A stretch of DNA of 64,000 bases from Deltaproteobacteria bacterium (GTDB lineage: Bacteria > Myxococcota_C > UBA6777): positions 1 to 64,000 of the forward strand of contig PCBK01000150.1 in the NCBI GenBank assembly GCA_002731275.1. Direction: 5' to 3'. The position numbers and the translations under genes were made by a program. The notes below the pieces were generated by a model. That model saw only the letters and a program-made list of their open reading frames with translations, had not been told where the DNA came from and ran no database searches. Shown here piece after piece: positions 5,518 through 61,068 of this stretch. The first letter of the stretch is position 1; each line of letters begins with the position of its first letter.

Positions 5518-5685
5518 GCTCGCTCTCCTTTGGGCTACTCCAAAAATGACCTTCATCATGACGATCTTGGACACGTTTGGCAACATGGACAAATATGTCG
5601 ACAAAGACTTTGGACAAAAAACAAGGACAAAGGCGACATCTACACAGCAAGAGTTTTTCGTTCTACCACCAACAAGGGCAAAGAG

Positions 5686-6372
5686 ATGCTGCGATATAGT
5701 ATCTTTGTGATCACACTGGCTCTCATGAGCCTCCATGCACACGACGTGTCAGCGTCGAATAAACAGCGCGTTGTCCTCAAGGATGGCTCGATTTTCCACG
5801 GGTACATCAAGAATATGGACGGTAAATGGGTTGTCTTGCAAACGTCTGGAGGCAGGCTACGGATTCCAGCAAAGGACATCAAGGGCATCACATTCCTCAA
5901 AGACAGCAGTATGCCGACAACGCGCAACCCCACCCAAAAGAGAAGCAAACGAGTCATTCACAAGTGGCGACAGAAAAAAATCCGCAGGGGCTTAATCGTC
6001 GGTGGGCTTACGGTCTTGACATTGAGTTACAGTCTCGGCGCGTTGGGGAGCTTCGCGGTCACGAGCAGCGGCCTCGGAGGATACCAGGATATCGCCGCAG
6101 GGTTTCTGATGTTGCCCGTCTTGGGGCCCTTTGTGAGCGCAGGGATCTTTGCAGCGAACAGAGGCTCAGGAGATGGTATTATCGCCTTTGTCGTCCTTGG
6201 TGTGTTGCAAACAGGTGGACTTGGACTCCTGCTCGCAGGTATATTTGGCAAGAAGCCAAAAGACAACAAGAAGCGCATGATGCAACCCAAACCAACGAAC
6301 GAGACAACAACCTCATGGCTCCCGGCTCCTCGACAGGAGCCCGCCGCACTTCATCCCATTTTCGTCCGATAG
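5686..6372 (+). CDS. Tandem membrane protein 1 (KDGS beta-domain plus membrane pair)
   Basis: A 228-residue protein starting at ATG 5686 (AAGGGCAAAG upstream). It has a signal or anchor segment (residues 1-25), then a short beta domain with [20 protein letters not shown] and [15 protein letters not shown], a basic linker, and two or three hydrophobic segments (about residues 103-200: [47 protein letters not shown]), then a polar tail. The beta domain resembles small SH3- or Sm-like barrels, but I do not recognise a named family. It is the first of three adjacent paralogues transcribed together (7-bp gap to the next gene). Each shares the motif order KDGS, YGRLRI, LSYS, LLPLVGPF and GxxQGxxLGLL. 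They probably assemble as a hetero-oligomer in the inner membrane. Function unknown. Confidence 0.75.
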
Positions 6373-6379
6373 GTCAGGT

Positions 6380-7099
6380 ATGTTCCCACAACGACAACCT
6401 CTCACACACAGCGTCGCGATGCTCGCGCCTCTCCTCCTTGGGGTGCTTTGTGTTGGCCTGTTGTCCACTCCGAGACAAGCCAAAGCGACAGTGTACGCCA
6501 TTCGTTTAAAAGATGGTTCGAGGATCAAGGGGACGTTGTCGATGATCACACCACTGCGCGTCGTGGTCCAGACCCCATACGGTCGACTCTCTCTCTACCG
6601 CTCAGAGGTCGAATCCATCTACCCACCTCTTTATCGCTACCTGATCATGACGAGGCGTGGATTGCGCATCACGCTCTCTCCTTTCAGAGGGGGCGTACCG
6701 CTCTTCAGGACGACCGCAGTCAAACGCAAAGAACCCACTCCCCGACAGAAGCTGATCACGGCAGGGATGTCGTTGTTCACATTGAGCTACAGCCTGTGTC
6801 TGATCCCTGGACTGTTAAGCCTCGGTCCAATCGCCCCCAATCTCGAATCCACGACCTTGTTGATTCCCTTGGTTGGACCTTTTATCAGCACCTTCGCGAT
6901 GGCTTTGAACCCACAGAACATCAAGGCTTTTGCCGCGCTCCCTCTGACACTTGGCGTCATGCAGGGGCTTGGACTTGGGTTGATGATATGGGGATGGATG
7001 ACACCAAAGAAGACCAAAAAGACGAGACGAACAAAGCGTCTCTCGGCGCACGTTCCACTTTACGACAACGACACAATATTTTACACAGAGAGCAACTGA
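6380..7099 (+). CDS. Tandem membrane protein 2, paralogue of its neighbours
   Basis: A 239-residue protein. A secretion-type N-terminus (about residues 13-36, LAPLLLGVLCVGLLSTPRQAKA) is followed by the beta motif RLKDGSRIKGTLSMITPLRV, then TPYGRLSLYRSEVESI, a linker of about 40 residues, and hydrophobic segments LFTLSYSLCLIPGL, LLIPLVGPFISTFAMAL and GVMQGLGLGLMIWGW. A basic tail (KKTKKTRRTKR) follows, so the C-terminus probably faces the cytoplasm. The start at 6380 follows the first gene by 7 bp; a second ATG at 6419 is possible. The stop overlaps the start of the third gene as ATGA, which implies translational coupling. Function unknown. Confidence 0.75.
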   Translation: MFPQRQPLTHSVAMLAPLLLGVLCVGLLSTPRQAKATVYAIRLKDGSRIKGTLSMITPLRVVVQTPYGRLSLYRSEVESIYPPLYRYLIMTRRGLRITLSPFRGGVPLFRTTAVKRKEPTPRQKLITAGMSLFTLSYSLCLIPGLLSLGPIAPNLESTTLLIPLVGPFISTFAMALNPQNIKAFAALPLTLGVMQGLGLGLMIWGWMTPKKTKKTRRTKRLSAHVPLYDNDTIFYTESN

Positions 7100-7755
7100 T
7101 GAGATGGCTTACACTTTTCATACTTGTGTTGGGTTTGATCAGCCTCACCCCTTCCGAAGTCGACGCCACAACACTGCACAAGATCCAGCGTAAAGATGGT
7201 TCATATATCATCGGTGAGATCCAGCGGCAGACTAGGTATTGGCTCTACGTCAAAACGAAATACGGACGCATTCGTCTACGTATCAGTCGCTATCATCGAC
7301 TCAAAGTCACACCCTATTCATCTTCCAAACCTCTCCCCACAAAAGCCACACACTACTATACATGGCGACGTGGCATCCACCCCAACGAGGAACCTCTACT
7401 CGTCGGGATGTACATGTTTGGTTTGAGCTACATCGTGCCGCTCTCGATCATTTTGTACACCATCCCTTCGAGTAATCAGCCTGCGACACTGCTTCAACTG
7501 CTCCCTTTCGTGGGGCCGATTGCCCACGCAGGTGTCATCATCAGTGAACGGAAAGATCTATGGGCTGTGTATGGTGGTTTGTCCCTTGGATTGGGCATTG
7601 TACAGGGTGTCAGTCTTGGACTGCTTTACTTTACGATGAAGAAGTCTCGCCCCAAAATCCCCTTCTGGAAGCGTCCTCGAATAGGTCGCAGATACATCCC
7701 CACACCATCAATGACGGGCAAACTCACGACACTCAGCCGTGAGCTTGGTTTATAG
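7099..7755 (+). CDS. Tandem membrane protein 3, paralogue of its neighbours
   Basis: A 218-residue protein whose ATG at 7099 overlaps the previous TGA by four bases. It has a signal segment (residues 3-24, ending EVDAT), then QRKDGSYIIGEIQRQTRYWL and TKYGRIRLRISRYHRL, a linker, then hydrophobic stretches MFGLSYIVPLSIILYTI, LLPFVGPIAHAGVII and GLGIVQGVSLGLLYF. The tail is basic. The motif order is the same as in the two genes before it, while sequence identity outside the motifs looks low, so the triplication is old. The gene ends 20 bp from the convergent HEAT-repeat gene. Function unknown; an envelope complex is the simplest reading. Confidence 0.75.
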   Translation: MRWLTLFILVLGLISLTPSEVDATTLHKIQRKDGSYIIGEIQRQTRYWLYVKTKYGRIRLRISRYHRLKVTPYSSSKPLPTKATHYYTWRRGIHPNEEPLLVGMYMFGLSYIVPLSIILYTIPSSNQPATLLQLLPFVGPIAHAGVIISERKDLWAVYGGLSLGLGIVQGVSLGLLYFTMKKSRPKIPFWKRPRIGRRYIPTPSMTGKLTTLSRELGL

Positions 7756-17055: not shown

Positions 17056-19095
17056 ATGGCCCACATAGACATCCCCTACTACCTCGACTTTCTTCCTCAA
17101 TCTCTCCTTCAAGAGTGCAACACACGTGCGAAGGCCATCCCCAATGTCCCAGGTCTCTCCCTCGCCCCCGGCATTCGTGAACAATTTCCCAATGTCGAAA
17201 CGGATGACGCGCTGCGCTTTGTCGTCCAGCTCTACGAAGAGACCAAAGACGAGCTCAATCAAGTCCTCGTCAAGCGACAAGAAGACCGGGCCTTTATGGA
17301 TCAAGAGACGCTCCAATGTCTCGAAGAAAACAAGGATGTCCCCTACCTCTCTCCAGATTATCAGACCGTCCTGGGGCGCAAAGACCAGACAGGTAGGCTC
17401 GTCGCAGGTCCATTACCACCACAAGAGACGTGGACCAAGGTCGACATCCCGGCGTCGATGGAAGGTGAACAGGTCACACTCTTTGGACCTCCAGACTCCC
17501 CACAGATGGCGATCAACGCGATGAACGCCCTGCACAGAAAGCTCCCCAACGAGCCCGCGATCGTCACCGAGCTCGTCGAGGAATCTGGACAGGTCCCACG
17601 CTGGGGCGCTGACAACGAAGATTCGATGACACCTACCCCCCAAAACATCATCGGCGCCAACCAAAATCTCATCGGCTGTTACGACAGGACCCTCACGTTC
17701 ACCGACGAGGCGCGGGGGAAACACTACGCGCTCGCCGAGGAGAAGCTCTCCAAACCGATCAAACGTATCCCCGGGCTCGCGCTACCAGACGGCAACCATC
17801 TATATCATGGTAATCCCCTGCCGCTTCATATCCTGGACTTTGGGTTGCAACTCTTTCACAACTGGCAACACCCAGAAGCCCTCGTCTTCTACGTCCCCAA
17901 ACTGGAGAATGAAGAAGAAGCCACATACCTCAAGCGATTCATCGAGCGTGCAGAGCGCACCATCAAAGAGCTGCATCCAGCCTATCAGATGGGTTCGATC
18001 AGGCTCTTTATCGTCTTTGAAAACCCCCGCGCGATCTTTCGAATCAGAGAGATCGCCGAAGCGCTCGCGCCCTACTTCGTCGGTGGGAGCCTCGGATGGC
18101 ATGACTTCCTCGCCTCAGCCGCCCGGTTGTTTAAATTTGACCCCAATTACCGCATCCCCGTCAAAGCGGACCCCAACATCGTCATCAACCACATCAAAGA
18201 GTCACACCTGCTGCTCGCCGAAGCGCTTACACCCATTGGCGGTATCAAGATCGGTGGGATGTACGGCATCCTCTACGAAGATGGCAATGAACACTCCTTC
18301 GAAGTCTGTATGGTGGGATACATCAAAGATGTCATTGTCCAACTGAAGCGGGGATTGGATGGTTTTTGGGTCGCCCACCCCAACTTCGTGCGTATGGGTT
18401 TGGCCATCGTGCAGGCGTGGCGACGTCAGGAACAGACACCTGGAGACGACACCCTCGATAGATTAATCAAGGCGCTCGTGCCGACACCTTCTGAACAAGA
18501 GCCGCTGCTCAACTTCGTCCACTCCAAGGACGCACCGGGCCTTGAACACGATGATCCACTGTACCTTCGTGGTGTGCTCGCGGCAGATCTGGAAGTCTCC
18601 GACGTGATCCCCAACGACCACCCTGATGAAGTCCGCTACAACATCTTTCAGGCGCTTCAGTACTTGGCTGACTGGCTCCGAGGGAATGGTTGTGTCGCGC
18701 TCCCTGCGCTCATGCACGACGCCTCTGGTGCCCCCGTCTTTGTGAGGATTATGGATGACCTCGCGACGACAGAGCGTTCACGTTGGGAGTTGTGGGCCGA
18801 GCTGTTCCACAAGCGTGTCTCTCATGAGACCTTTGAGACACTTCTTCAGGAAGAGATCGACTTTATCAAGAGTGGCGCACAGACGCCGACCAAGCGCGTA
18901 CAGATCTTCTGGAATGAACAGACAGAGCGCTGGTATCCTATCGCCATTAAGCTCCTCAAACAGCTCGTGATGAGAGAGGAACCTGTCGAATTTGCGACGG
19001 AGCTGCTCATCCCCTTTACACTTGATATCATCCGCGATGCCGAAGATCCCTGGAAGCGAGCTTGCGAGCTTTGTCCAGGCCACTACCAGGAATAG
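17056..19095 (+). CDS. Malate synthase (divergent, long form)
   Basis: A 679-residue protein; start at ATG 17056 with AGGAG eight bases upstream. It condenses glyoxylate with acetyl-CoA to malate. Family marks are MGSIRLFIVFENPRAIFRI (TIM-barrel strand), GLDGFWVAHPNFV, WLRGNGCV, and the catalytic aspartate segment MDDLATTERSRWELW (Asp567/568, equivalent to MEDAATAEISR). It is about 150 residues longer than malate synthase A, mostly in the N-terminal 250 residues. No isocitrate lyase is in the window; instead the genes after it release glyoxylate from ureides. That suggests the enzyme serves purine breakdown. It is the first gene of a co-directional run with PuuD-type urate oxidase, allantoinase, allantoicase and OHCU decarboxylase. 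Confidence 0.88.
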   Translation: MAHIDIPYYLDFLPQSLLQECNTRAKAIPNVPGLSLAPGIREQFPNVETDDALRFVVQLYEETKDELNQVLVKRQEDRAFMDQETLQCLEENKDVPYLSPDYQTVLGRKDQTGRLVAGPLPPQETWTKVDIPASMEGEQVTLFGPPDSPQMAINAMNALHRKLPNEPAIVTELVEESGQVPRWGADNEDSMTPTPQNIIGANQNLIGCYDRTLTFTDEARGKHYALAEEKLSKPIKRIPGLALPDGNHLYHGNPLPLHILDFGLQLFHNWQHPEALVFYVPKLENEEEATYLKRFIERAERTIKELHPAYQMGSIRLFIVFENPRAIFRIREIAEALAPYFVGGSLGWHDFLASAARLFKFDPNYRIPVKADPNIVINHIKESHLLLAEALTPIGGIKIGGMYGILYEDGNEHSFEVCMVGYIKDVIVQLKRGLDGFWVAHPNFVRMGLAIVQAWRRQEQTPGDDTLDRLIKALVPTPSEQEPLLNFVHSKDAPGLEHDDPLYLRGVLAADLEVSDVIPNDHPDEVRYNIFQALQYLADWLRGNGCVALPALMHDASGAPVFVRIMDDLATTERSRWELWAELFHKRVSHETFETLLQEEIDFIKSGAQTPTKRVQIFWNEQTERWYPIAIKLLKQLVMREEPVEFATELLIPFTLDIIRDAEDPWKRACELCPGHYQE

Positions 19096-47430: not shown

Positions 47431-48489
47431 ATGCGCAAGCCCAACAACAGAAACAAACATCCAAACGAGACCCTCCCGAAACCCTCGCTCGATGAACACC
47501 TCTCCCACCACGGTGATCCAGGCGAGGACACCTTCGAATTTGTCATGCGGCAAAAGAAGGCGGAGGAGACACCAGACAAAGGCTTTCAGCCGGGTTCGAT
47601 GAACATCACACAGACGATGCAGATCAACCTCCCACTGGAAAAGCTGACGCAAGAGCCGTGTCTTCTGTACATGTCTGGTCTTCAAGCGGGAAAACTTTGG
47701 CCACTCTCATTCAACCACAACAATCTCATCAACATTGGACGTGACCCTGACTGCGAGGTCTCCTTTGAGAGTCCAGAGATCTCCAGACGCCACGCAGAGA
47801 TCGAACGCCTCGATGATGGCACTCTGCTGCTCGCTGACCTCAACAGCAAAAATGGTACATTTGTCAACAATCACAAGATCAAACGTTGTAGCCTCCAACC
47901 AAATGACAAGATCCAGGTCGGGGCACGCGAGATCATCAAACTCGTCTACCAAGATCAAGAAGAGGTCGCTTGCTGGCATCAACTCTACCGGCATTCAGTC
48001 AGTGATTGGTTAACAGGCGCATACAATCGCCGCTACTTTTTCCACTACATCGAAAAAGAGTGGGGCTTCGCCACCCGTCACCAGATCCCCTTCTCGATGA
48101 TACTCTTTGACATTGACCACTTCAAACATATCAACGACACCTACGGACACCCCGTCGGCGACCGTGTCCTCTGTGAGCTTGTGAGCCGCGTACAACAAGA
48201 GATCAGACAAGAAGACATCCTCGCACGATACGGCGGTGAGGAGTTCGCGATCTTGCTGCGCAATACAAACCAACAAGGCACACAATGGCAAGCAGAGCGG
48301 ATCCGCCAACTCGTCAGCAGTCGGCCATTCGACATCGGTAACCAAAGGCTCAACATCACAGTCTCAGTCGGTTTCGTCTGCTATACAGCGGACATCCTCC
48401 CACACAAAAGCCCACAAGAGCTCATCGCTGATGCCGATATCCAGCTCTACCACGCCAAAGAAGGTGGACGCAACAGAATAAGCGGATAA
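47431..48489 (+). CDS. FHA-domain diguanylate cyclase (GGDEF)
   Basis: A 352-residue protein. A polar leader (1-75) is followed by an FHA domain at about 80-170 (INIGRDPDCEVSFESPEISRRHAEI and LLLADLNSKNGTFVNN, with the phospho-Thr contact residues Arg, Ser, His and Asn). A GGDEF domain runs from 185 to 350 (DWLTGAYNRRYF, FDIDHFKHINDTYGHPVGD, ARYGGEEFAILL). The signature GGEEF is a catalytically competent variant; an RxxD inhibitory site is not obvious. It makes c-di-GMP and probably docks on phospho-threonine made by Hanks kinases such as the one at 49401. ATG 47431 has a poor ribosome site (GAGGAG is 15 bases upstream), so the start is tentative. Confidence 0.9.
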   Translation: MRKPNNRNKHPNETLPKPSLDEHLSHHGDPGEDTFEFVMRQKKAEETPDKGFQPGSMNITQTMQINLPLEKLTQEPCLLYMSGLQAGKLWPLSFNHNNLINIGRDPDCEVSFESPEISRRHAEIERLDDGTLLLADLNSKNGTFVNNHKIKRCSLQPNDKIQVGAREIIKLVYQDQEEVACWHQLYRHSVSDWLTGAYNRRYFFHYIEKEWGFATRHQIPFSMILFDIDHFKHINDTYGHPVGDRVLCELVSRVQQEIRQEDILARYGGEEFAILLRNTNQQGTQWQAERIRQLVSSRPFDIGNQRLNITVSVGFVCYTADILPHKSPQELIADADIQLYHAKEGGRNRISG

Positions 48490-49400: not shown

Positions 49401-51917
49401 TCACCGAAACGCGTATAGATATCCATCATATCCATGCACATAGACTGTCTTTTGATCGACAAATGGCGCAGAGCCGATGCTCGTGTTGAGTTTGATGGAC
49501 CAAAGGATTCTTCCGGTTTTGTAGTGTCTCGCCACAAGCCTTTTGCCATAACTGGCATGTAGGACAACGCCACCAGCAACGACCATCCTCTTTGATGGGC
49601 GTCCTCGCTTTGTCTCCCAAAGGATCTTTCCATCTCTTGCGCGCACACCGTACAAAGAAGACGTTCGACTCCTCTTCCCTGTCGTCGTCACCATGACCAC
49701 CCCGTTGTACACGATAGGTGAGTAACTCCACCCATCAAGCCGAATGGTCCACATCTTCTTGAGTGTCCTCAAGTTAATACCAGAGAAATCTTTGTCGCTA
49801 CCTGCAAAGGCCATATGCCGATACAACGCAACAGCTGAGACATCACTTTTAAACCGAAAATTTTTGATGAATCGACCACTCCCCATCTCCCGCACGGTCA
49901 ATGTGTCATCGTTAGAGCTGTACACAAGGGAGCTTCGGTATAAAGCGATGGGATGGTAAACCCGCCCGGCCATTCGATAGGACCAAAGCATGGACTTATT
50001 GACATGATCGTAGCTTCGAAGCAAGCGTCCCTCGGTAAAGTAGATGGCTCTTTTGTACACGAGCGGCGGGTGCAAGAATACATACCGAGCGGAGAACGTT
50101 CGTTTAATCGTACCTTTATGGGCATCGACAATAAAGAGGTCGCTGCTCTTGTTTGTCACAAAAAGCTCATTGCCAACTGCTGAGTATGCCATCCAAGCCC
50201 AAGAGCCCCTGGAGGCGTAGTCTCTGGTCTTGAGTTTCCACAACACATCCCCAGTTTTTCGGTCCAACGCTCGAAGTACACCTCTGTTGGACCCTACATA
50301 TACGCGCCCATGTGCAACAATCGGGGCACCACGTCCAAGACCTCCCGTCTTTGTACGCCACAACAGCTTTGGTTTTCTCCACACTCCACGTGTTCTGAGA
50401 TTACCAGCACGGTCATAACCACCTCGATACCGCACAATCCTCCGTGTGTAGTAACCTCTCTTCTTCTTTCTCTTGACCTTCCTTCGAACAAAAGGTCTGA
50501 CAGGCGGCCTTGTCGATAGCGTTGAACGTCGCACCTCAGGCTGCTTCACAACGTTTCGTTTGGGTGGCGTCGCGACAGGCTTCTTGACCTTGCGTGGCTT
50601 GACGACAGCTCTCATACGAGGCTTTGCCTTCGGAGGCCTTGGCCCTTTTAAAGATGTAACACGGAGCTTGCCGACCTCCCTGACAGATTGCTTTTTGCCG
50701 AGCGCATATAACCACCAACCTCCTCCAACGAGCAAAACGATCACCAACAGACCGACAAGCAGAGGAACAACAGGGACACGCAAGGGCTCTTTCTTTGGCG
50801 AGGTCGACTGCGCAGACTCAAACACAGGCTCTCCCATCACGATCGTCTCTCTTTCATCGGTAAGATCGGGGGTGGGTAACACATGTTCAACAAAAGACGT
50901 GCCTGTAGACGCGCCTGTCGGCAACGCAGGTAAAGCGTCCATACTCACACCACCAAGAGAGGACATTTCAGCGGAGAATTGAGCAGCAAATGGAAGCAGC
51001 GCCTCCCAAAAAGAGGCCACATCTGGGTAACGTTGCTCAGGTGTTTTGGCCAACGCGCGCAAAACAACATCATCAAGACCCAAAGGAAAAGCGGCCTCAG
51101 GTGCCATCACAGCGAGTGGTATGGGTTCTTGATGGACGTGCGCCATCAACCACACGAGGTCTTCATCAGAGTCGACGACGTAGGGTTTCTTCCCTGTGAG
51201 CATCTCGTACAGAATGATCCCCATCGAGTAGATATCTGCGCGTTTGTCGACAGCTTTGCCAAGACATTGTTCGGGGGACATGTAATAAGGTGTCCCCAAC
51301 ACGCCTTTGGTCAACTCCGACTTGGCCTTTGTCGGCCTTGCGATACCAAAATCGATGATCTTGACGAAGTGAGATTCTTGTTGCTTCTGGATCAAGAAGA
51401 GGTTGTCGGGCTTGAGATCCCTGTGTACGATGCCAGCCTCGTGAGCGGCCTTCATCCCCACACACATCTGGCGAAAGAGATGCAGGGCAAAAGCAAACGG
51501 CAGCATCCCATCTCGCGACAAGAACTGCTTCAGCGTCATGCCCTTGAGATATTCCATGACATAGTAATGGCCTAGATTGGGCTCTTCCCCAAAGTCATCG
51601 TAGATCCGAACGATATGATCGTTTTTCTCGGAGAGCGTCGTCGTAATCTGGACTTCTCGATGAAAGCGGGCTTCCACGTTCTCTTTTGCAAAGATCTCCG
51701 GCTTGATCACTTTGATGACGCGCTTTTTCTCTTCGAGTCCGACGTGGTGTGCGAGGTAGACAAAACCAAAACCTCCCTCTGCGAGCACCTTTTCGAGTCG
51801 GTACTTTCCAGCAATCACCATCAGCGGAAAGCGACAGCGAGGACAAAACGTCAGCTCCAACACGCCCTGCTGCAAATCCAACGCACAACTGGGACACTGT
51901 TGCAATTTCTCCGTCAT
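49401..51917 (-). CDS. Zinc-ribbon Ser/Thr kinase with membrane helix and periplasmic PQQ-type propeller
   Basis: An 838-residue protein (ATG 51917). Domains: zinc ribbon (Cys8, Cys11, Cys25, Cys28), an intact Hanks kinase at about 39-310 (glycine loop GEGGFG-like EGGFGFVY, Lys69 in VIKVI, His165-Arg-Asp167, DFG, GTPYYMSPEQ), a spacer, a membrane helix at about 381-406, a Lys/Arg/Pro-rich stalk, and a C-terminal beta propeller of repeats of the PQQ/YncE type (KLLWRTKTGGLGRGAPIVAHGRVYVGSNRGVLRALDRKTGDVLWK). It is thus a receptor kinase whose sensor domain is outside the inner membrane. The propeller may bind a sugar, peptide or quinone cofactor. Its kinase is active by motif, in contrast to the related pseudokinase at 28618. 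Confidence 0.92.
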   Translation of the reverse strand: MTEKLQQCPSCALDLQQGVLELTFCPRCRFPLMVIAGKYRLEKVLAEGGFGFVYLAHHVGLEEKKRVIKVIKPEIFAKENVEARFHREVQITTTLSEKNDHIVRIYDDFGEEPNLGHYYVMEYLKGMTLKQFLSRDGMLPFAFALHLFRQMCVGMKAAHEAGIVHRDLKPDNLFLIQKQQESHFVKIIDFGIARPTKAKSELTKGVLGTPYYMSPEQCLGKAVDKRADIYSMGIILYEMLTGKKPYVVDSDEDLVWLMAHVHQEPIPLAVMAPEAAFPLGLDDVVLRALAKTPEQRYPDVASFWEALLPFAAQFSAEMSSLGGVSMDALPALPTGASTGTSFVEHVLPTPDLTDERETIVMGEPVFESAQSTSPKKEPLRVPVVPLLVGLLVIVLLVGGGWWLYALGKKQSVREVGKLRVTSLKGPRPPKAKPRMRAVVKPRKVKKPVATPPKRNVVKQPEVRRSTLSTRPPVRPFVRRKVKRKKKRGYYTRRIVRYRGGYDRAGNLRTRGVWRKPKLLWRTKTGGLGRGAPIVAHGRVYVGSNRGVLRALDRKTGDVLWKLKTRDYASRGSWAWMAYSAVGNELFVTNKSSDLFIVDAHKGTIKRTFSARYVFLHPPLVYKRAIYFTEGRLLRSYDHVNKSMLWSYRMAGRVYHPIALYRSSLVYSSNDDTLTVREMGSGRFIKNFRFKSDVSAVALYRHMAFAGSDKDFSGINLRTLKKMWTIRLDGWSYSPIVYNGVVMVTTTGKRSRTSSLYGVRARDGKILWETKRGRPSKRMVVAGGVVLHASYGKRLVARHYKTGRILWSIKLNTSIGSAPFVDQKTVYVHGYDGYLYAFR

Positions 51918-52162
51918 CTTCAATCACTCCATTTTGTAAATCACATGGATGTACCTCTAGCACAAATCACCTAGCACCGAAAGACCTTCTCTGATGGCCT
52001 GCTGATGGACTTTGGACTATCACCCCACAAAAAATAACGAACAAAGAGCTTCTATATCAACACATTTTCGACTATTATTTCAAAAAAAGAAGAAACATTT
52101 CAGAACATGAAACGAGAATAGACAGTAGAGTCAAAAACCATCACAAAAGACCGGAGGATACG
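51918..52162. promoter_or_regulatory. AT-rich divergent promoter region
   Basis: This 245-bp region between the divergent kinase and RGG/Asn-rich genes is markedly AT-rich from 52020 to 52110, with A-runs at 52029 and 52081. It must hold both promoters. No hairpin or palindrome was clear enough to call an operator. Confidence 0.4.
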
Positions 52163-52900
52163 ATGAGAGTTGGTGGAGGAAGAGGATGTAATCGCGGTGG
52201 CAGCTCTCGCAGAAGTCACCGTGGACATGGCACAAGAACACATCGTGGACATCGACAAGGTCGTAGAAGACGTTGCAATCGACAAAGTGAGGATACCTTC
52301 TCTACAGCACCTCAAAACGTGCGAGAGACACACGTCCCTGATGTCCCAAGGGCATCCGATCCAAGTCGCTTCCCAACACAGACCACACACCGCCCCAGCT
52401 CTGGTCGCGGACAGGGTCTCAACATCCTCCGTGACATCATCTCCGGGATCATTCAACAACAACCTGCGACCCAACCCAATCAGCCTGTACAAACAACACA
52501 ACCAAGCAGCAACCCTGTCGCGACATTCATCCCACCAAACGGAAACAGCAATAACAACCCTGTCTCCACATTTGTCCCCCCCAGCAACAACAACGGGAAC
52601 AACGCAAACAGCAACCCTGTCTCGACGTTCATCCCCCCCTCCAACAACAACAACGCAAACAACAATCCAGTCTCGACGTTTGTCCCTCCCAACAACGCAA
52701 ATAACAACGGGAACAAGAGCGCGAATAACAACCCCGTCTCGACCTTTCTCCCTCCCAACAACGCAAAGAACAACACCGCGACGACGACAAACAACACCGC
52801 AACAATCGCAAATCACATCCCCGTTGTGAATCACATCCCCACAGTCAACATCGCCAACACCAACCCCATCGCGACCTTTCTTGATCCCACCAAAAAATAG
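52163..52900 (+). CDS. RGG-type and Asn-rich low-complexity protein
   Basis: A 245-residue protein behind a perfect ribosome site (GGAGG, five bases, ATG 52163). Residues 1-41 are rich in Arg, Gly and His, with RGG/RGH-like spacing (RGCNRGGSSRRSHRGHG). Residues 85-100 are a hydrophobic helix (GLNILRDIISGIIQQQ). From about 115 to the end there are six units of NP(V/I)(S/A)TF(V/I/L)(P/D)P separated by Asn-rich spacers of 5-35 residues. No signal peptide or known domain. The composition matches disordered RNA-binding or condensate-forming proteins in eukaryotes, which is rare in bacteria. The frame is supported by the ribosome site and by the periodic repeat; the other frames through this region are less credible. 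Confidence 0.65.
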   Translation: MRVGGGRGCNRGGSSRRSHRGHGTRTHRGHRQGRRRRCNRQSEDTFSTAPQNVRETHVPDVPRASDPSRFPTQTTHRPSSGRGQGLNILRDIISGIIQQQPATQPNQPVQTTQPSSNPVATFIPPNGNSNNNPVSTFVPPSNNNGNNANSNPVSTFIPPSNNNNANNNPVSTFVPPNNANNNGNKSANNNPVSTFLPPNNAKNNTATTTNNTATIANHIPVVNHIPTVNIANTNPIATFLDPTKK

Positions 52901-52994
52901 CAGCCTGTTTCATTTGGGGAGTGGAGGTTGGGTGGGGGGAGTTGTGAGAATATTCTTAACAGAGGGGTTCTATCTGGCGGGCGATATCAATCGA

Positions 52995-55900
52995 TTACTT
53001 TTCCACACATTTTTGTGAACAAGATGTCCAAGAACCAAGCGCACAGGCTTTCTTAAAGAACGCGTTGGCCTTTGCGCAGTCTCGCTTTGGCCCTTTGCTC
53101 AAGCGCACCGCGACGAGACGACAGTAGTTTGCGCTCTTCAATGCACACGCCTGCTCAAACATCGCGAGCGCTTTGGACGCTTGCTTTTGTCCACCAACAC
53201 CTTCTTCCATCAAGGAACCTACTTTTCCGCAGCCTACAGCATCACGTAGTTTACAAGAGAGCGCAAAGGCCTCACGCGCTTCTTTGTCCGCAGTCTTGCC
53301 ATCCAAAGGCGTACGCAAAAAGAATCCAAGAGAGGCACAACCCTTGCCACTGCCCATCAAACAAGCCTTCTTGTAATAGCGATAGGCTTTGGACTCTTTG
53401 TGTGTGCTCGCCTTCTCATAACGGTACACATCGCCTACACCAATACATGAATCACCGTGACCAAGCTGACATGCCTTCTCAAAATGTTTCTTTGCCAACT
53501 TCTCAGAACGAATACGATCCCAACCAGAGCGCCAACGACGGCGATAACGCCAACGAGACCCCCAACGCCGAAGCGGGATTTTTGAGAACTTGACTGGCGT
53601 AAGCTTGATCTTTTGTCGATGGTACAACCCTGCAACGTGTGCACAGCTTGGCCCATCATTCGCACGACAACCACGCTTGTACAAGTTATGGATATACGTC
53701 GTCTTCTTCTTCTTGTCTTTCTGTTTGTCCATATACTTCGCAAGTTGCCAGCATGCTTCTGGGACCATCAAGTCACAGACTTTCTTCAACAACTCAACGG
53801 CTTGCTCGACTCCTTCTTTGGGAGCCGTATTTTTTTGCAAGAGTCCCACTCCCTTCCACACACAAGCTTTTGGAGAGCGCTTACAAGCAGCCTCGCTCTT
53901 CTTGGTAAAGATCTCAATCCACTGCTTACGCTCGGAAGTCGTGGTCAAATCGCCAAGAATGAATCCCGCACGAACAGCACATGAGCGAAGATCTCCTTTC
54001 AGACATGCCTTCTCAAGGGACACTTGCGCTTTGCTTTGTTTTGGGTTGGTGCGCAGTTGACCGAGCGCAAGGGCACCACAACCACTTGACCAACCAAGCT
54101 TACAAGCAAGAGAGAAGTACGCCTGGGCTTTCTTTTGATCTGGAAGCGTGTAGAGACCTTTTTGCAGCCGCTCACCTAGCAAAAAGCAGCTCTGTGCGTC
54201 TTGGGTCTTGGCCTTGAGTGAACATCCCTCTTCGAGTAATGTATGTGTCGAAGAGGCATCACACTTACCACCTTGTTGGTGGAAGCACATCTTCGCATAA
54301 ATTGAGCATGAACGTTTGCTACCAGAGCGACAGGCTTTTTGATATAGGCTTCGGATCTCGGCCTCATTGTGAACTTGCCCCTCACGTTCGAGAGTACGGG
54401 CGAGGAAGTGACAGGCCTTGAACTCTCCCCACCAACATGCGCGGCGGAAGAAGTATTTTTGCTGCTCTGGTTGTCCCTTGAAATGACGTCCAAGTACATA
54501 GCACGCACGTCGTTCATTGCCTTTACAAGCGACTTTTAGCGCAGACAGGACTTGCGGCTGGAGTGATGAAGATAAGGTGGAGATCACGAGTGCTTCGTGA
54601 GACACACCTGTTTTGCGCTTCACCCACAGGTAACAACCGAGCGCGTCACCTTTTTGACATGACGAATGAAGCATAGAAGTCGCCTTCTTTGGCGCGCGTT
54701 TGAGCATACTAGCGGCGAGCGCAGAGCACGCGTGGACGTGACCAGCCTTACATGCCTTGGAGAACACCTCTTCGGACTTTTTGTGTGCCTTCTCTTGGGC
54801 AGCTTTATCTTTCTCGTCCTTCGCCTTCTGCGCCCACCATTGACCGAGCACAAAGCAACCAAAGCCGTCTTTTAACGCGCAGGATTTCTCAAACCATTCC
54901 CGCGCTTTTTCGGGGGCGACCTTCTCACCAAGTCCCAAGCGATATGAGCGACCACGCAAGATACACCCCTCAGGATCACCGAGTGTACAAGCCTGCTCGA
55001 AGACTCTGTTCGCCTCGCTCTCATCTTTGGTGCCACCTATTTGTTGTCGAGAGAGCCAGCCGAGGAGTGTGCATGCGCGCCCTTTCTTTCCGGCGCAGTC
55101 GTGTTGTACGTCGATAATCGAGCTCAAGAAGAGTCGTCCAACTGGTCCCCCTGGTTTGACTTGGTACTTTGCAAACAGATCTGTTTTGGCATCGAGCGAA
55201 GGACGGCATGTAAACGCACAAGCCGACTTTGCGCCATATTCGCAAGCTTGCTTGTGTAAGAGCCGCGCAGGGAAGCAGTACCTGTCTGTGAAGCCCCAAA
55301 AGGTCTTCGCGAGCTCCAAACACGAACGTCCATTTTTCAACATACAGGCCTTCGCAAAGTGCGCACGAGCGACCTTTTCATCCTGCTCCATCCCAAGGCC
55401 TTCACTCGACAATGCGCCGATGTAGTGACATGAGAAGCTGTTTTTGTACAAACAGGCTTTCTTGAAGTAAGGAATCGCCTTGAGCAGATTGGTCCGCGAC
55501 TGATACCGACCTCGTTCGTGTGCAAGTCCCATCAACAAACAGGCGTAGCCGAGCTTTTTGGTACAGAGCATCTTGAGGAGCTTGACCTTACCGCTGTCGT
55601 CCTTGCCGCTCTCCAAAAGCGCCTTATCAAGACCCTTTGGCAGCGTCTTACATCCCTTGTCGTGCCTCTTGCAGCGAATAAATGACCAACCAAATGCCTT
55701 GCTCAAGGAGACAGGCTGTCCGATCCCCATTCGGTAAAGCATACTCACCGTGACGCAATCCTTATCGCTGCTTTTGTTGCACGATGTCTTCAACTTGGTA
55801 ACATAAGCCTTGTATTCTTTTCGAAGATGAGGGAAAGACTTGTACATTGGCAACAACCGTTGACAATCAGCCTCACTTCCGGCCCAACACTGTGTCCAAA

Positions 55901-56102
55901 AGTGGCAGCTCACACCATCGGTGTGGATGCAAGCTGGTCCTTTCTTTACAGGTTTCTTCTTCAAAGCCATGGTCGTAGGTTGTGCTTTCTTCGCCTTTTT
56001 GGCAGGGAGTTGGATCAGATCGACGACCTGTGCGTGAGCCAGCCCCCCCCATAACAAACAAAGTAACCACACGGACGTCCACATAAAGCGTTTCCTCATC
56101 AT
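52995..56102 (-). CDS. Secreted Cys-rich Sel1-like repeat protein (1035 residues)
   Basis: AGGAG lies four bases before ATG 56102; a second ATG at 56099 is equally good. A signal peptide ends at about residue 25 (LWGGLAHA), and then a Lys-rich linker. The rest is a run of Sel1-like repeats of 32-36 residues (A..YFKKAC....SC..LG..Y..G.G), with one or two cysteines per unit (KACLYKNSFSCHYIG, KACMLKNGRSCLELA, KACKLGWSSGCGALA). The paired cysteines suggest disulphides in the periplasm, as in HcpA-like cysteine-rich proteins of Helicobacter. The N-terminal 100 residues are distinct. It is divergent from the next large gene (271-bp spacer), with which it shares secretion and repeats. The partner is unknown. 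Confidence 0.88.
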   Translation of the reverse strand: MMRKRFMWTSVWLLCLLWGGLAHAQVVDLIQLPAKKAKKAQPTTMALKKKPVKKGPACIHTDGVSCHFWTQCWAGSEADCQRLLPMYKSFPHLRKEYKAYVTKLKTSCNKSSDKDCVTVSMLYRMGIGQPVSLSKAFGWSFIRCKRHDKGCKTLPKGLDKALLESGKDDSGKVKLLKMLCTKKLGYACLLMGLAHERGRYQSRTNLLKAIPYFKKACLYKNSFSCHYIGALSSEGLGMEQDEKVARAHFAKACMLKNGRSCLELAKTFWGFTDRYCFPARLLHKQACEYGAKSACAFTCRPSLDAKTDLFAKYQVKPGGPVGRLFLSSIIDVQHDCAGKKGRACTLLGWLSRQQIGGTKDESEANRVFEQACTLGDPEGCILRGRSYRLGLGEKVAPEKAREWFEKSCALKDGFGCFVLGQWWAQKAKDEKDKAAQEKAHKKSEEVFSKACKAGHVHACSALAASMLKRAPKKATSMLHSSCQKGDALGCYLWVKRKTGVSHEALVISTLSSSLQPQVLSALKVACKGNERRACYVLGRHFKGQPEQQKYFFRRACWWGEFKACHFLARTLEREGQVHNEAEIRSLYQKACRSGSKRSCSIYAKMCFHQQGGKCDASSTHTLLEEGCSLKAKTQDAQSCFLLGERLQKGLYTLPDQKKAQAYFSLACKLGWSSGCGALALGQLRTNPKQSKAQVSLEKACLKGDLRSCAVRAGFILGDLTTTSERKQWIEIFTKKSEAACKRSPKACVWKGVGLLQKNTAPKEGVEQAVELLKKVCDLMVPEACWQLAKYMDKQKDKKKKTTYIHNLYKRGCRANDGPSCAHVAGLYHRQKIKLTPVKFSKIPLRRWGSRWRYRRRWRSGWDRIRSEKLAKKHFEKACQLGHGDSCIGVGDVYRYEKASTHKESKAYRYYKKACLMGSGKGCASLGFFLRTPLDGKTADKEAREAFALSCKLRDAVGCGKVGSLMEEGVGGQKQASKALAMFEQACALKSANYCRLVAVRLSKGPKRDCAKANAFFKKACALGSWTSCSQKCVEK

Positions 56103-56373: not shown

Positions 56374-59300
56374 GTGTATAGACGAACGATTTTGCAGTTG
56401 GTCCTGCTGTTGTTGATTTGGCCAACAACCCCTTCGATCACAATGGCAGATGATGGCGACTCCTGGAGTTTGCGAACACGAAACCGCAAACAACTGATCA
56501 TCAGGCGACTTCGTCTGATACTACGTCGCAATCCTTTCTCTCCTTATGCCCTTCGTCGCTTACTCTCAGTGTACAAGAGCCCCAAAGAGCTCAGTGAGCT
56601 TGAAGAGCGCCTTCGCGAATCACTCACACAGGCGCCTAGCGATCTCCCCAACCGCATTCTACTCGCCCGACTCCTCGAAGCCAACAACGAGTGGGCCGAA
56701 GCACAAAAACACTACATGAAGGTGCACAAGCAAAAGCCTAAGTGGGTTGAGCCGATGCTCGCGCTTGGCCGCTGTCTCTTTGCGAGAAAAAAGCACAAAA
56801 AAGCCATCAGCTTCTTTCGCAAAGGCCTCGCGGATCTCAAAGGCTACAGAAAGCGTCGCATTCTTTGGAAGCTCTTGCGCTCTTCACTCAAAGCCAAACA
56901 ACGCAAAGTGATCGCGTTCTCGCTCAAACAGATCGAAGCGCGGCCACTGATGTCAGATGAAAAGCTGACACTCGCCCGTATGCTTGTAGAACACGAGCAA
57001 TGGAAGCCGGGTCTGCGACTGTACGACACGGTCCTCAAAACCAGCGACGGTGCCTTCCGCGTCCGTCTCCTGCTTGAGATGTGCCGCGCCCGTATCGCCG
57101 CCAAAGAGTACACAAAAGCGCTCGCACACATCAAAGAAGCCCGCAGCATCAAGTCCATCCACAAGTGGTTCCTGTGGGAGCTGCAAGTGCGCGAAGTCGA
57201 GATCTACCGCAACCAAAAACGACTGAGCAGCCTGCTGTCCAAGCTACGCACCAAATGGAGTAAAGCCCCACACAACAAAGACTACAGAAAAGTCCTGCTC
57301 CTCGCGCAGCTCTTTCAGGAGGTCAAGCTCGAACAATCAGCGAGACAGTATTTCGAGCGCGCCTCAGCCCTCAAACCAACCGAGAGCGAACCCAGACTTC
57401 AGCTCATCAAGTGGTACTTCAACCATCTCCAACCAGAGAAAGCCTTCGCGCAGATCAAACAATTGATCAAATTCGATGTCGCTTCTCCCATCCACTATCT
57501 CCAGCTCGCCAAGTACAACTTCAAAAAAAGCATGCTGCACAATCTCAGCCCATGGGAGCCAGAGTGGGCAGAACACCGCACATGTAAGCAGGAAGAGACC
57601 ACACAGACGACAAAACAAAGCCTGGAAAAGGTCACCTGCAAACGCAAAGACTGGAACGTACACCGCCAGAGGATGTGGCGTTTTTGGCGCAGATACATCG
57701 CAACACAGACCCAAAAGAAGGCATATGACCGCGCGATCAGCCTGCTTGCGTTGCTCAAAAAGCGATACCAGGGTAATTGGCAAGTGATGTTGGATCTCCA
57801 GGAGATGTACAATCGATACGGTCGACTCAAAGAGTCCGAGCAAGCGTTCCAACACATGGTCAAGGCGACACAAGTTGACGTCAAACAGATCCGCACTGTG
57901 CAGGTGCTCTTGTGGAAAAAAGGACGCACAGACGCGTTCCGAAAAGTCTTGATTGGTCTCCTACACAAGTCCGTCCCAACATTCCGCAACGCGGTCGAGT
58001 TTGCCTCGTATGTGTACAACCCAACGGCCCTTCCAGATCCAGCCCCAGAACCCACGCTCGAAGAAGTTCGCGCGTGGCAAAAGAAAATACACTTACCGCT
58101 TCGGCTGTTCCTGTACAAAATCCAGCGCCGTTTGCCCGAGAGCTTTGTCAAAAGTCATCCCGAACTCTCCGTTCGAATGAATGTCCTGCGATACCAATGT
58201 GGGGACAAAAGTCCCAAAGTCCGAAGCGCTATCAAACGCGCAGAGGAGCGCCTGATCGAGACGACCCCTGGCGTCAAGTTCCTGCTCTCACTCTATCTCG
58301 AATACCAATACGACGAAGCACTCGGACGCCTGCTGACACATCCGCGATTCAAAAAATACCCCCAACAACTTCACGCCCTGTTGTACCCACTCATCGACAA
58401 AAAGATCAGCATCGGGCAAGTTCAATTTCTGCTCAACACGACCTTTACCTCCACACAAAAACGAAACCCTCTGTTTATCAGCTTGTTGACCAAGGCATGT
58501 CGACAAAAGCGTCTGTGTGTGAGGCTCCAACCTTACTTTGAAAAGGCCATCAATACGACCTCTATCCCACCTCAAATGTTGATGCAAGGGCTCCAACAAG
58601 CCATGCGTTTCAAGCCTTACAAGAGCAAGAGCACCAAGTGGCTCGCCTCCCTCAAAAAAAATTACTGGGAGCACCCAGCTTCGTTGCACAAACTCGTGGA
58701 ATCATCGGCGCTCTTCAAGAGCAGCAAAGAGATGCAAAACCTCCACCTATCGATCTTGATCCGCGCCCTCCAAAAGCGAAAGACACAACCCTTCAAGCTT
58801 GGTGCGTGGGGACGGATGATCCAGGAACACCTCAAACGCCTGCGTCCTCGCCGCTTTAAAGATAAACAAATGATCTTGAAGCTCGAACAAGCGACCAAGC
58901 GCTTCCCCATGTTGTATAGACAAATCCTCGCGTTCTACCTGTACAATTACAAATACCGCAAAAAATACGGTATCCCCAGACTCAAAGTCTGGTTGCTCTC
59001 CAACCCACAAGTCGATGATTTGATGTTCTTGGAGCGTTACTACTACTACATCAACCGCAGCCAAGGTGATTGGCTCGCCGATCTCGTCAAACAGATGAAG
59101 ACCTCCAGTCAGTTGCACTGGATGGCGACCTTCGCGCACAAAAAAGGCAAGCTCAAGCTCCACATCCAAGTACTCAAGAGACTGATTCAGCTACACCCCA
59201 AGTCATCAAGATATCTCAAACGTATCGTCGAGCTGATGGACCGCAGCAAACAAAGTCGACAAGCCGATGCCTACGCAATCAGGTGGCTCAAGATGCACCC

Positions 59301-61068
59301 TGAAGTAACGACCATCTCGTCCATACGTTCTTTTGCAAAAGGTTGTTGTGCTGATCTATCTTCACAGCACCGCGCACGTAGACTCCTCTTTGTTGGACTC
59401 AAACAACATGGCTTCAAGTCACTTTGGCCTTCCTTTGAGCAGCTCTACCCACAACTTCAGCGCAAACAACAGGACGCCCTTGTCAAGCTGATTCTCCAAC
59501 AAAAACACTCAAAACAACAGCTACTCAAGCTCGACGAGCTGCTCCAAAAAGGTCCGGCGATCGCTGCACATGGTGAAGTCCTCAAGAGACTGCTCGCGAC
59601 AGGCTCTCACTCCAGACAACACCAAAGAAAATATGCGACCCTCCTCGAACGCAAAGGCGAGCCCATCAAAGCCACAGCCTACTGGGAGAAGTATCTCAAG
59701 GGCATGTCCGCAGACAAACGTGTGCGATTCTTTAAGCAACGCGCGAAGCGCTTTGTCCGAGCAGGAGACTTCCGGCTCGCTGGACTCGCCTACTACCGGG
59801 CACTTGCAGTCGATCCTCCCGACAACTCCGAGGAGATTAAAGAGCAAATCGAGGAGATCAGTCGCAAAGAACCCTGGAAAGCCTGGGGAATGTGGCTGTG
59901 GATGCTCGGAAAAAAGAACGCACAGTGTTTACAAAACAACAAAAAGCACTTCCCTCACCGCGCATTTCTCGCGACACCCTTGATGAAGCTCGGGATTTTG
60001 TATCGCGGCCCCTATGTTCAATTCGCTCGCTGTCAGTGGTTACTTCCACAAAGAGTCCGCTACACAGCAGTCACGACATTGATCCAACATCTCAAAAACT
60101 ACCCAATGCAAAAAATCGTGATCACTGGACGCGCCAACAAAGGGAGCGAGCCAGATGAAGCCTTCCTCGCCAAGATGCGAGCGAGTAGCTTGCGTCAGGC
60201 CATCATCAACGCCGGGATCGCGAAAAATAGAGTCAAGGTCGAATACTTTGATAACAGCACCAAACCCTGCGCCAGTCTCACCAAGCAAAAAGAGAAATCA
60301 TTGTGTCACCTCTCCTTGCAACGCGTCTCCATCTCCTTCCGCTCCCCATATATGACACAGGCCTCCACGACCCAAAACCCCGTCTCCTTCAGCAAGATGA
60401 TGAAGAGCGACGCCGACAATGATGGTGTCCCCGACTATATGGATAACTGCCCGCTTGTCTCCATTGAAAAAGCAACACGTTACCAATATAAGCGCCGTTA
60501 CAGAAGAACCAAAAAGAAAACACAACTCAAACACCCTCTGACCAAGCTATACCCCAACAACCACTCCTACCGCTCATATAGACGGTACAATAGAGGCAGT
60601 ACAGCCGGTCCATTGTCCAAAACTTTGTTGCGTGGTTGCCCGCTCACCGCTGTTCACAAGCAAATCAAAGGGCTCCAGGCCGACATTTTGCAGACGGAAA
60701 ACATCCCGTACTACCGCAACTCTACCAGCATCAGAAGTTACGGATATGCAGTCATCAACCAAGTCGCTGCGCTCCTGCGCTTGATGCCCTCCCTCGGAAA
60801 AGTACAGATCGAGGTCAAAGTCAAAGATGAACGCTACAAACGCTACAGAAAGCGTAGGCTTCGCTACTACCAAAAGCCCAAATATATCGCCAAAAAACGT
60901 GCACAATATCTCATCCGTTACCTGAAGCGTCAGGGAATCCCTTCGAGTCGATTGAGCTACGTCCTCGTGACAAAACCCGAGAAGAAACGACCTCGTGTTA
61001 TCTTCCGCCTGCTCGATATCAAGACGAAAATGAGTCCCTTCCCTGATCCCAAAAAAGTAGGGTTGTAA
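56374..61068 (+). CDS. Giant secreted TPR protein with two OmpA-like domains and a TSP3 repeat
   Basis: A 1564-residue protein; GTG at 56374 with GAGGT five bases upstream. The signal peptide is residues 1-24. Residues 40-1180 are a TPR-like helical superstructure with visible repeats (WAEAQKHYMKVHKQKPKWVEPMLALGRCLF, YDRAISLLALLKKRYQGNWQVMLDLQEMY). The end is composite: an OmpA-like segment (about 1230-1325, LIQHLKNYPMQKIVITGRANKGSEPD), a thrombospondin type 3 calcium motif at 1345-1362 (DADNDGVPDYMDNCPL), and a second OmpA-like segment (about 1440-1550). Both OmpA-like parts lack the strict NxxLSxxRA peptidoglycan signature, so they may be degenerate. It probably reaches the periplasm or cell wall. 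The size and order are uncommon. Confidence 0.82.
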   Translation: MYRRTILQLVLLLLIWPTTPSITMADDGDSWSLRTRNRKQLIIRRLRLILRRNPFSPYALRRLLSVYKSPKELSELEERLRESLTQAPSDLPNRILLARLLEANNEWAEAQKHYMKVHKQKPKWVEPMLALGRCLFARKKHKKAISFFRKGLADLKGYRKRRILWKLLRSSLKAKQRKVIAFSLKQIEARPLMSDEKLTLARMLVEHEQWKPGLRLYDTVLKTSDGAFRVRLLLEMCRARIAAKEYTKALAHIKEARSIKSIHKWFLWELQVREVEIYRNQKRLSSLLSKLRTKWSKAPHNKDYRKVLLLAQLFQEVKLEQSARQYFERASALKPTESEPRLQLIKWYFNHLQPEKAFAQIKQLIKFDVASPIHYLQLAKYNFKKSMLHNLSPWEPEWAEHRTCKQEETTQTTKQSLEKVTCKRKDWNVHRQRMWRFWRRYIATQTQKKAYDRAISLLALLKKRYQGNWQVMLDLQEMYNRYGRLKESEQAFQHMVKATQVDVKQIRTVQVLLWKKGRTDAFRKVLIGLLHKSVPTFRNAVEFASYVYNPTALPDPAPEPTLEEVRAWQKKIHLPLRLFLYKIQRRLPESFVKSHPELSVRMNVLRYQCGDKSPKVRSAIKRAEERLIETTPGVKFLLSLYLEYQYDEALGRLLTHPRFKKYPQQLHALLYPLIDKKISIGQVQFLLNTTFTSTQKRNPLFISLLTKACRQKRLCVRLQPYFEKAINTTSIPPQMLMQGLQQAMRFKPYKSKSTKWLASLKKNYWEHPASLHKLVESSALFKSSKEMQNLHLSILIRALQKRKTQPFKLGAWGRMIQEHLKRLRPRRFKDKQMILKLEQATKRFPMLYRQILAFYLYNYKYRKKYGIPRLKVWLLSNPQVDDLMFLERYYYYINRSQGDWLADLVKQMKTSSQLHWMATFAHKKGKLKLHIQVLKRLIQLHPKSSRYLKRIVELMDRSKQSRQADAYAIRWLKMHPEVTTISSIRSFAKGCCADLSSQHRARRLLFVGLKQHGFKSLWPSFEQLYPQLQRKQQDALVKLILQQKHSKQQLLKLDELLQKGPAIAAHGEVLKRLLATGSHSRQHQRKYATLLERKGEPIKATAYWEKYLKGMSADKRVRFFKQRAKRFVRAGDFRLAGLAYYRALAVDPPDNSEEIKEQIEEISRKEPWKAWGMWLWMLGKKNAQCLQNNKKHFPHRAFLATPLMKLGILYRGPYVQFARCQWLLPQRVRYTAVTTLIQHLKNYPMQKIVITGRANKGSEPDEAFLAKMRASSLRQAIINAGIAKNRVKVEYFDNSTKPCASLTKQKEKSLCHLSLQRVSISFRSPYMTQASTTQNPVSFSKMMKSDADNDGVPDYMDNCPLVSIEKATRYQYKRRYRRTKKKTQLKHPLTKLYPNNHSYRSYRRYNRGSTAGPLSKTLLRGCPLTAVHKQIKGLQADILQTENIPYYRNSTSIRSYGYAVINQVAALLRLMPSLGKVQIEVKVKDERYKRYRKRRLRYYQKPKYIAKKRAQYLIRYLKRQGIPSSRLSYVLVTKPEKKRPRVIFRLLDIKTKMSPFPDPKKVGL

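What the first reader, a model, noticed from the sequence alone, without database searches (positions are those of the whole stretch)
52163..52900. Bacterial RGG plus Asn-rich NPVSTFxPP repeat protein
The protein has an RGG/RGH-like head, one amphipathic helix and six NPV(S/A)TF(V/I/L)PP motifs in Asn-rich spacers, behind a perfect ribosome site. The mix is typical of condensate-forming RNA-binding proteins and is rarely seen in bacteria. The regular hydrophobic motifs within disordered Asn look like stickers in a sticker-and-spacer polymer.
Basis: partly seen in the sequence, partly recalled or inferred. Interest (0 to 1): 0.7.

Follow-up and report, generated by a model that had tools for sequence, protein, structure and literature searches.

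The report
Orphan disordered bacterial repeat protein
A one-of-a-kind bacterial gene encodes a floppy protein with an arginine-rich head and six copies of a short NPVSTF-type motif strung on an asparagine-rich chain; selection seems to have kept the motif, so it probably works as a flexible multi-site tether, but no relative and no direct evidence of function was found.

Summary
The ORF at 52163-52900(+), 245 aa, is real. It has a Shine-Dalgarno site 5 nt before the ATG and genome-typical codon usage. Motif variation among copies falls mostly at wobble positions. It has a +14 Arg/Gly/His head (aa 1-41), one predicted helix (84-96), and an almost uncharged Asn-rich tail. The tail carries five exact NPV[SA]TF[VIL]PP motifs plus one degenerate C-terminal copy (NPIATFLDP); all six tail Phe lie in the motifs. 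AlphaFold2 (single sequence) gives pLDDT 44. It is an orphan: no homologue in its own genome, the four other searched genomes of its phylum, 386 genomes, 85k-species contigs, viruses, phages, plasmids, Pfam, NCBIfam or PDB. The "RGG" label fails the strict tri/di-RGG and tri-RG definitions (one RGG; di-RG only). Asn-rich spacers are not exotic here: this bacterium uses poly-Asn as the tether behind many lipoprotein lipoboxes. Best explanation: a cytoplasmic multivalent linear-motif tether, with a polyanion-binding head and hexavalent docking tail. The head's ligand and the motif's partner are inferred, not shown. Self-driven condensation with RNA is possible but not specifically supported; six single-Phe motifs are few. 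A type III-secreted protein, or a young orphan with little function, cannot be excluded.

The parts
52153..52165 (+). Shine-Dalgarno GGAGG followed by 5-nt spacer (ATACG) and ATG
   Evidence: Direct sequence...GACCGGAGGATACGATG
52163..52900 (+). Orphan 245-aa disordered repeat protein (26.3 kDa, pI about 12)
   Evidence: ORF; codon-usage score; composition
52163..52285 (+). Arg/Gly/His-rich head, aa 1-41, net +14, no acidic residue; one di-RG motif, two Cys, one RRRR
52286..52411 (+). Disordered linker, aa 42-83
   Evidence: AlphaFold2 low pLDDT, no helix or strand
52412..52462 (+). Short amphipathic helix QGLNILRDIISGI (aa 84-96) and following Ile/Gln run
   Evidence: AlphaFold2 helix 84-96; highest hydrophobic moment in the protein
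52511..52537 (+). Motif 1 NPVATFIPP (aa 117-125)
52556..52582 (+). Motif 2 NPVSTFVPP (aa 132-140)
52613..52639 (+). Motif 3 NPVSTFIPP (aa 151-159)
52664..52690 (+). Motif 4 NPVSTFVPP (aa 168-176)
52730..52756 (+). Motif 5 NPVSTFLPP (aa 190-198)
52862..52888 (+). Degenerate motif 6 NPIATFLDP (aa 234-242), C-terminal
   Evidence: not matched by the exact pattern
52553..52774 (+). Imperfect DNA tandem repeats (periods 51 and 66 nt, 76-85% matches): duplication history of the motif-plus-spacer unit
   Evidence: Tandem Repeats Finder

Best explanation
A leaderless, most likely cytoplasmic, intrinsically disordered tether. Shown: a gene with strong coding signals; a basic Arg/Gly/His head; one short predicted amphipathic helix; a nearly uncharged Asn/Pro/Thr/Ser tail with six NPVSTF-type motifs, whose copies vary mainly at synonymous positions while the spacers differ in length and sequence. 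Inferred: the +14 head binds a polyanion (RNA, DNA, polyphosphate or acidic lipid); the helix gives weak self-association or membrane docking; each NPV[SA]TF[VIL]PP is a docking peptide for one partner protein, so that six copies on an inert Asn-rich string gather several partner molecules on the anchored head by avidity.
For: Coding signal and ribosome site. Wobble-biased divergence of the motif copies. All tail Phe in motifs and almost no charge in the tail. Disorder with a single helix at 84-96. No signal peptide or lipobox visible in the sequence. Asn-rich stretches act as plain tethers in this genome: about nine own-genome proteins have poly-Asn just behind the lipobox Cys. Outlier even among 1542 predicted ORFs in 2.19 Mb of the same genome. 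Precedent for the logic: CsoS2, a disordered bacterial protein whose repeated short motifs bind partners multivalently (PMC11365436), and pyrenoid linkers, which keep this architecture with little sequence conservation (PMC11570498).
Against: No homologue in any genome searched, so selection is seen only among internal copies. The motif set was found by its protein similarity, which biases the wobble test, and an antisense frame sharing the wobble positions gives a similar synonymous share. No partner is known and the gene stands alone between two genes on the other strand. AlphaFold2 was run without an alignment.
Confidence: 0.4

Rival explanations
1. Self-cohesive condensate former with RNA: motifs are mutual stickers, Asn-rich stretches are spacers, and the head recruits RNA.
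For: Tail Phe only in motifs and uncharged spacers of 6-35 residues. Same design principle as Nup98 FG domains: hydrophobic motifs, uncharged spacers, cohesion set by spacer length (abstract of PMC9918544). Arg-rich head.
Against: Only six motifs with one Phe each and no Tyr or Trp. Strict RGG-box definitions not met. Asn-richness is a general linker habit of this genome.
Confidence: 0.2
2. Young or fast-evolving orphan low-complexity gene with little specific function; the motifs are left over from duplication of a short DNA segment.
For: No homologue anywhere searched. DNA tandem repeats of 51 and 66 nt at 76-85% matches. Low-complexity composition.
Against: Copies differ mainly at wobble positions (7/9 third, 0/9 second). 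Typical host codon usage and a strong ribosome site.
Confidence: 0.17
3. Leaderless protein exported by the type III secretion system of this bacterium (or a leaderless surface protein), acting outside the cell.
For: The genome has type III secretion genes (SctJ and SctI-like, locus L312) with a leaderless Asn/Gly/Ser-rich protein beside them; the query has no signal peptide.
Against: The gene is on another contig, not near secretion genes. Its first 25 residues are 68% Arg/Gly/His and only 20% Ser/Thr/Ile/Asn/Gln, unlike the N-termini of two other leaderless proteins of the genome, 36% and 56%.
Confidence: 0.1
4. Multisite substrate of the divergently transcribed Ser/Thr kinase (49401-51923, minus strand), read by an FHA-domain protein such as the FHA-GGDEF gene at 47431-48489: the invariant Thr of each NPV[SA]TF motif is the phosphosite.
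For: The kinase gene shares the 239-bp intergenic region; an FHA-GGDEF gene lies 3.7 kb away. Thr is invariant in all six motifs.
Against: The genome holds 123 kinase matches, so a kinase neighbour is weak evidence. Pro at +3 after the Thr is not a typical FHA-bound phosphothreonine context (general knowledge, not tested). No conserved neighbourhood.
Confidence: 0.08
5. Scaffold of a bacterial microcompartment, with helix 84-96 as an encapsulation peptide.
For: Short amphipathic helix joined to a disordered linker; encapsulation peptides are of this form and can drive condensation (PMC12339742). One BMC-H shell gene exists in the genome.
Against: Only one BMC-H gene, on another contig beside an aldolase/dehydrogenase, and no BMC-P pentamer gene. 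The helix is internal and the protein has no enzyme domain.
Confidence: 0.02

Closest known systems
CsoS2, alpha-carboxysome scaffold (PMC11365436)
   Same: Bacterial, intrinsically disordered, with repeated short motifs that act multivalently
   Different: No sequence similarity found (no Pfam or NCBIfam match); motif differs (VTG and Tyr versus NPVSTFxPP); no full shell gene set here; CsoS2 is about 90 kDa
EPYC1 and CsLinker, pyrenoid Rubisco linkers (PMC11570498)
   Same: Disordered chain with repeated binding elements; architecture kept while sequence is poorly conserved, so homology searches fail
   Different: Algal; repeats are helical and sought at 20-120 residue spacing; here the motifs are short, not predicted helical, and 6-35 residues apart
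Nup98-type FG-repeat domains (PMC9918544)
   Same: Phe-containing hydrophobic motifs joined by uncharged polar spacers
   Different: Eukaryotic nuclear pore protein; FG/GLFG rather than TF(V/I/L)PP; repeat number not compared here, recalled as tens of FG motifs
RNase E C-terminal region / BR-bodies (PMC11964227, PMC10412687)
   Same: Bacterial disordered region that scaffolds partners through short linear motifs and can condense
   Different: Attached to an enzyme; motifs are not a homogeneous tandem set (own knowledge); no similarity found
Eukaryotic RGG-box RNA-binding proteins (definitions in PMC9957100)
   Same: Arg/Gly-rich disordered head
   Different: Only one RGG; tri-RGG, di-RGG and tri-RG patterns not met; no RNA-binding domain

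Membership tests
RGG-box (GAR) protein | tri-RGG, di-RGG or tri-RG with 0-4 residue gaps | tested here: not met
   Pattern search: none of the three; one di-RG (RGCNRG, aa 7-12) only (definitions in PMC9957100)
RGG-box (GAR) protein | RNA binding | not testable with these tools
   Needs a binding assay
Multivalent disordered scaffold/linker (CsoS2/EPYC1-like in mode of action) | Mostly disordered chain | tested here: met
   AlphaFold2 mean pLDDT 44.2, one helix 84-96 (single sequence)
Multivalent disordered scaffold/linker (CsoS2/EPYC1-like in mode of action) | Repeated conserved short motif with variable spacers | tested here: met
   Five exact plus one degenerate motif, spacers of 6-35 aa, wobble-biased variation
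Multivalent disordered scaffold/linker (CsoS2/EPYC1-like in mode of action) | Binding of a partner by the motif | not testable with these tools
   Partner unknown
CsoS2 family proper | Sequence match to a CsoS2 or any other known family model | tested here: not met
   No Pfam or NCBIfam match
Bacterial microcompartment cargo/scaffold | Shell genes BMC-H and BMC-P in the genome | tested here: not met
   One BMC-H, no BMC-P; genome about 95% complete
Bacterial microcompartment cargo/scaffold | Encapsulation peptide at a terminus of a core enzyme | tested here: not met
   Helix is internal (aa 84-96), no enzyme domain
Lipoprotein with poly-Asn tether (the usual Asn-rich protein of this genome) | N-terminal signal peptide with lipobox Cys before the Asn run | tested here: not met
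   Head is Arg/Gly/His, no hydrophobic leader, unlike the proteins
Type III-secreted protein | Ser/Thr/Asn/Ile-rich N-terminus and linkage to secretion genes | tested here: inconclusive
   Composition atypical; secretion genes present in the genome but elsewhere

The most novel reading that the evidence does not exclude
A lineage-specific bacterial organiser in which six copies of a previously undescribed linear motif, NPV[SA]TF[VIL]PP, on an Asn-rich string recruit an unknown partner domain to a nucleic-acid-bound Arg-rich head, forming a new membraneless assembly.
Probability: 0.15. Interest if true: 0.65.

Novelty: new variant of a known kind. Interest (0 to 1): 0.36.

Why it matters
If the tether model holds, it shows that large-genome bacteria of a little-sampled phylum (five searched genomes) invent their own motif-on-a-string scaffolds, invisible to homology searches, from a linker style (poly-Asn) they already use for lipoproteins. 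It also gives a clean test object: one small gene, one motif, one aromatic residue (Phe) per site.

Tried and rejected
Homology by protein in own genome, 60 and 386 other genomes, the phylum, viral contigs, 85k-species contigs, phages and plasmids, Pfam, PHROGs, NCBIfam and PDB: nothing; weak hits (E 0.01-1) are low complexity and several contain stops. Synteny through the kinase, Sel1 and TPR-OmpA neighbours: orthologues diverged and in other contexts; no counterpart gene. Poly-Asn proteins as relatives: lipoprotein tethers, not relatives. Microcompartment scaffold: rejected. Reverse-strand ORFs 52100-52834 and 52480-52797: poor codon scores and no ribosome site. Promoter/terminator scan and Rfam: nothing useful.

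Full report
OBSERVATION. The window is contig C139 of a 10.75-Mb, 200-contig genome. ORF 52163-52900(+) encodes 245 aa and starts 5 nt after GGAGG. Coding status rests on two signals. (a) Synonymous codon choice scores 0.214, within the range of 22 window genes (0.02-0.26) and above all their non-coding frames (maximum 0.076); head and tail score 0.18 and 0.24 separately; the overlapping ORFs score 0.06, -0.20 and 0.08, and those on the other strand have no ribosome site. (b) The five exact motif copies differ at 7 of 9 third positions, 2 of 9 first and 0 of 9 second positions. Caveats: the motifs were chosen by protein similarity, and the antisense frame that shares the wobble positions has a similar synonymous share (37:23 against 45:28), so (b) supports the frame only together with (a).

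ANATOMY. Head, aa 1-41: 14 Arg, 10 Gly, 4 His, 2 Cys, no acidic residue, net +14; RG at 7, 11, 20 and 28, one RGG. Linker 42-83. Helix 84-96 (within QGLNILRDIISGII), seen by AlphaFold2 (mean pLDDT 44.2, single sequence) and as the hydrophobic-moment maximum. Tail 101-245: no Arg or Glu, 4 Lys, 1 Asp; six Phe, every one in a motif; no Tyr or Trp in the whole protein. Motifs: NPVATFIPP, NPVSTFVPP, NPVSTFIPP, NPVSTFVPP, NPVSTFLPP and degenerate NPIATFLDP; spacers of 6, 10, 8, 13 and 35 aa. DNA-level tandem repeats of 51 and 66 nt, 76-85% matches, indicate that the units arose by duplication. No shuffle of the tail out of 20000 contained a motif.

RELATIVES. None found. The protein was compared with its own genome, the five genomes held for its phylum, 386 genomes, viral contigs, 85k-species contigs, phages and plasmids, Pfam, PHROGs, NCBIfam and PDB. 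Motif patterns elsewhere occur once per listed record, so they look like chance. Neighbour orthologues in the four relatives are too diverged and differently placed to offer a syntenic slot.

GENOME CONTEXT. The gene lies alone on the plus strand between a minus-strand Ser/Thr kinase with a PQQ propeller (49401-51923) and a minus-strand Sel1-repeat protein (52995-56102). The genome has 123 kinase matches, so this neighbour says little. Asn runs in this genome were traced with a DNA pattern and read: most belong to lipoproteins with poly-Asn right after the lipobox Cys. Asn-rich chain is therefore the house style for flexible linkers, which weakens the prion-like reading and strengthens the reading of the tail as motif plus inert string. 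In 2.19 Mb of the genome (1542 predicted ORFs) only one other leaderless protein of this class appeared: L299:10346-11125, a Gly-rich GGGLGGILGGLFGGG repeat protein with an Asn/Gln-rich head, without a Pfam match and with no convincing similarity to the query.

MECHANISM. Shown: gene, disorder prediction, repeat set, wobble-biased divergence. Inferred: polyanion binding by the head; self-association or membrane docking by the helix; one partner per motif. I favour a multivalent tether (0.40) over RNA-driven condensation (0.20), a near-functionless orphan (0.17), a type III-exported protein (0.10), a kinase substrate/FHA hub (0.08) and a microcompartment scaffold (0.02). Condensation is not excluded: CsoS2 shows that repeated motifs in a disordered bacterial protein can both bind partners and condense (PMC11365436), and FG domains show cohesion from Phe motifs in uncharged spacers (abstract of PMC9918544). 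But six single-Phe motifs are few.

COMPARISON. It works, probably, like CsoS2 or pyrenoid linkers; it is not a member of either. As an RGG-box protein it fails the strict definitions (PMC9957100). As a microcompartment part it fails on the missing BMC-P gene. Verdict: a real, unusual orphan of modest interest; I found no description of the motif, but nothing ties it to a function yet.

Noticed in passing
L299:10346-11125 (own genome, contig C48): Another leaderless, low-complexity 259-aa repeat protein: Asn/Gln-rich head, then several GGGLGGILGGLFGGG-type repeats; its segment GLNLGNISNIFQQGLQQ vaguely resembles the query helix GLNILRDIISGIIQQ. No Pfam match.
   Followed up: partly
L256, L258-L263, L265, L266 (own genome): Poly-Asn runs directly behind the lipobox Cys are a recurrent lipoprotein tether in this lineage (for example CGDPGSNNNNNNNNN, CGGENNNNNNN).
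   Followed up: partly
L312:14034-20000 (own genome, contig C61): Non-flagellar type III secretion genes: SctJ (18105-18986), SctI-like (17391-17930), a sigma factor and a leaderless Asn/Gly/Ser-rich protein.
   Followed up: partly
G000:C172:31211-31435 (minus), L296: A single BMC-H shell gene beside a class II aldolase/short-chain dehydrogenase fusion, with no BMC-P gene found in the genome.
   Followed up: partly
52916-52940 (+): G-rich run just after the stop codon (GGGGAGTGGAGGTTGGGTGGGGGG), and a two-tier G-quadruplex pattern at 52172-52185 inside the first head codons (GGTGGAGGAAGAGG); RGG-coding G-quadruplexes have been linked to autoregulation in humans (PMC11789052).
   Followed up: no
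5446-7755 (+): Three tandem genes with similar layout: short leader, a KDGS segment, then a hydrophobic multi-pass-looking region; they look like a duplicated membrane-protein family.
   Followed up: no
56374-61068 (+): Giant TPR-OmpA protein with a thrombospondin type 3 repeat, with two diverged paralogues in the same genome (C2 and C21) and a counterpart in each of the four relatives.
   Followed up: partly
whole genome: 123 kinase-domain matches in one genome, and 75-115 in each of the four relatives.
   Followed up: no
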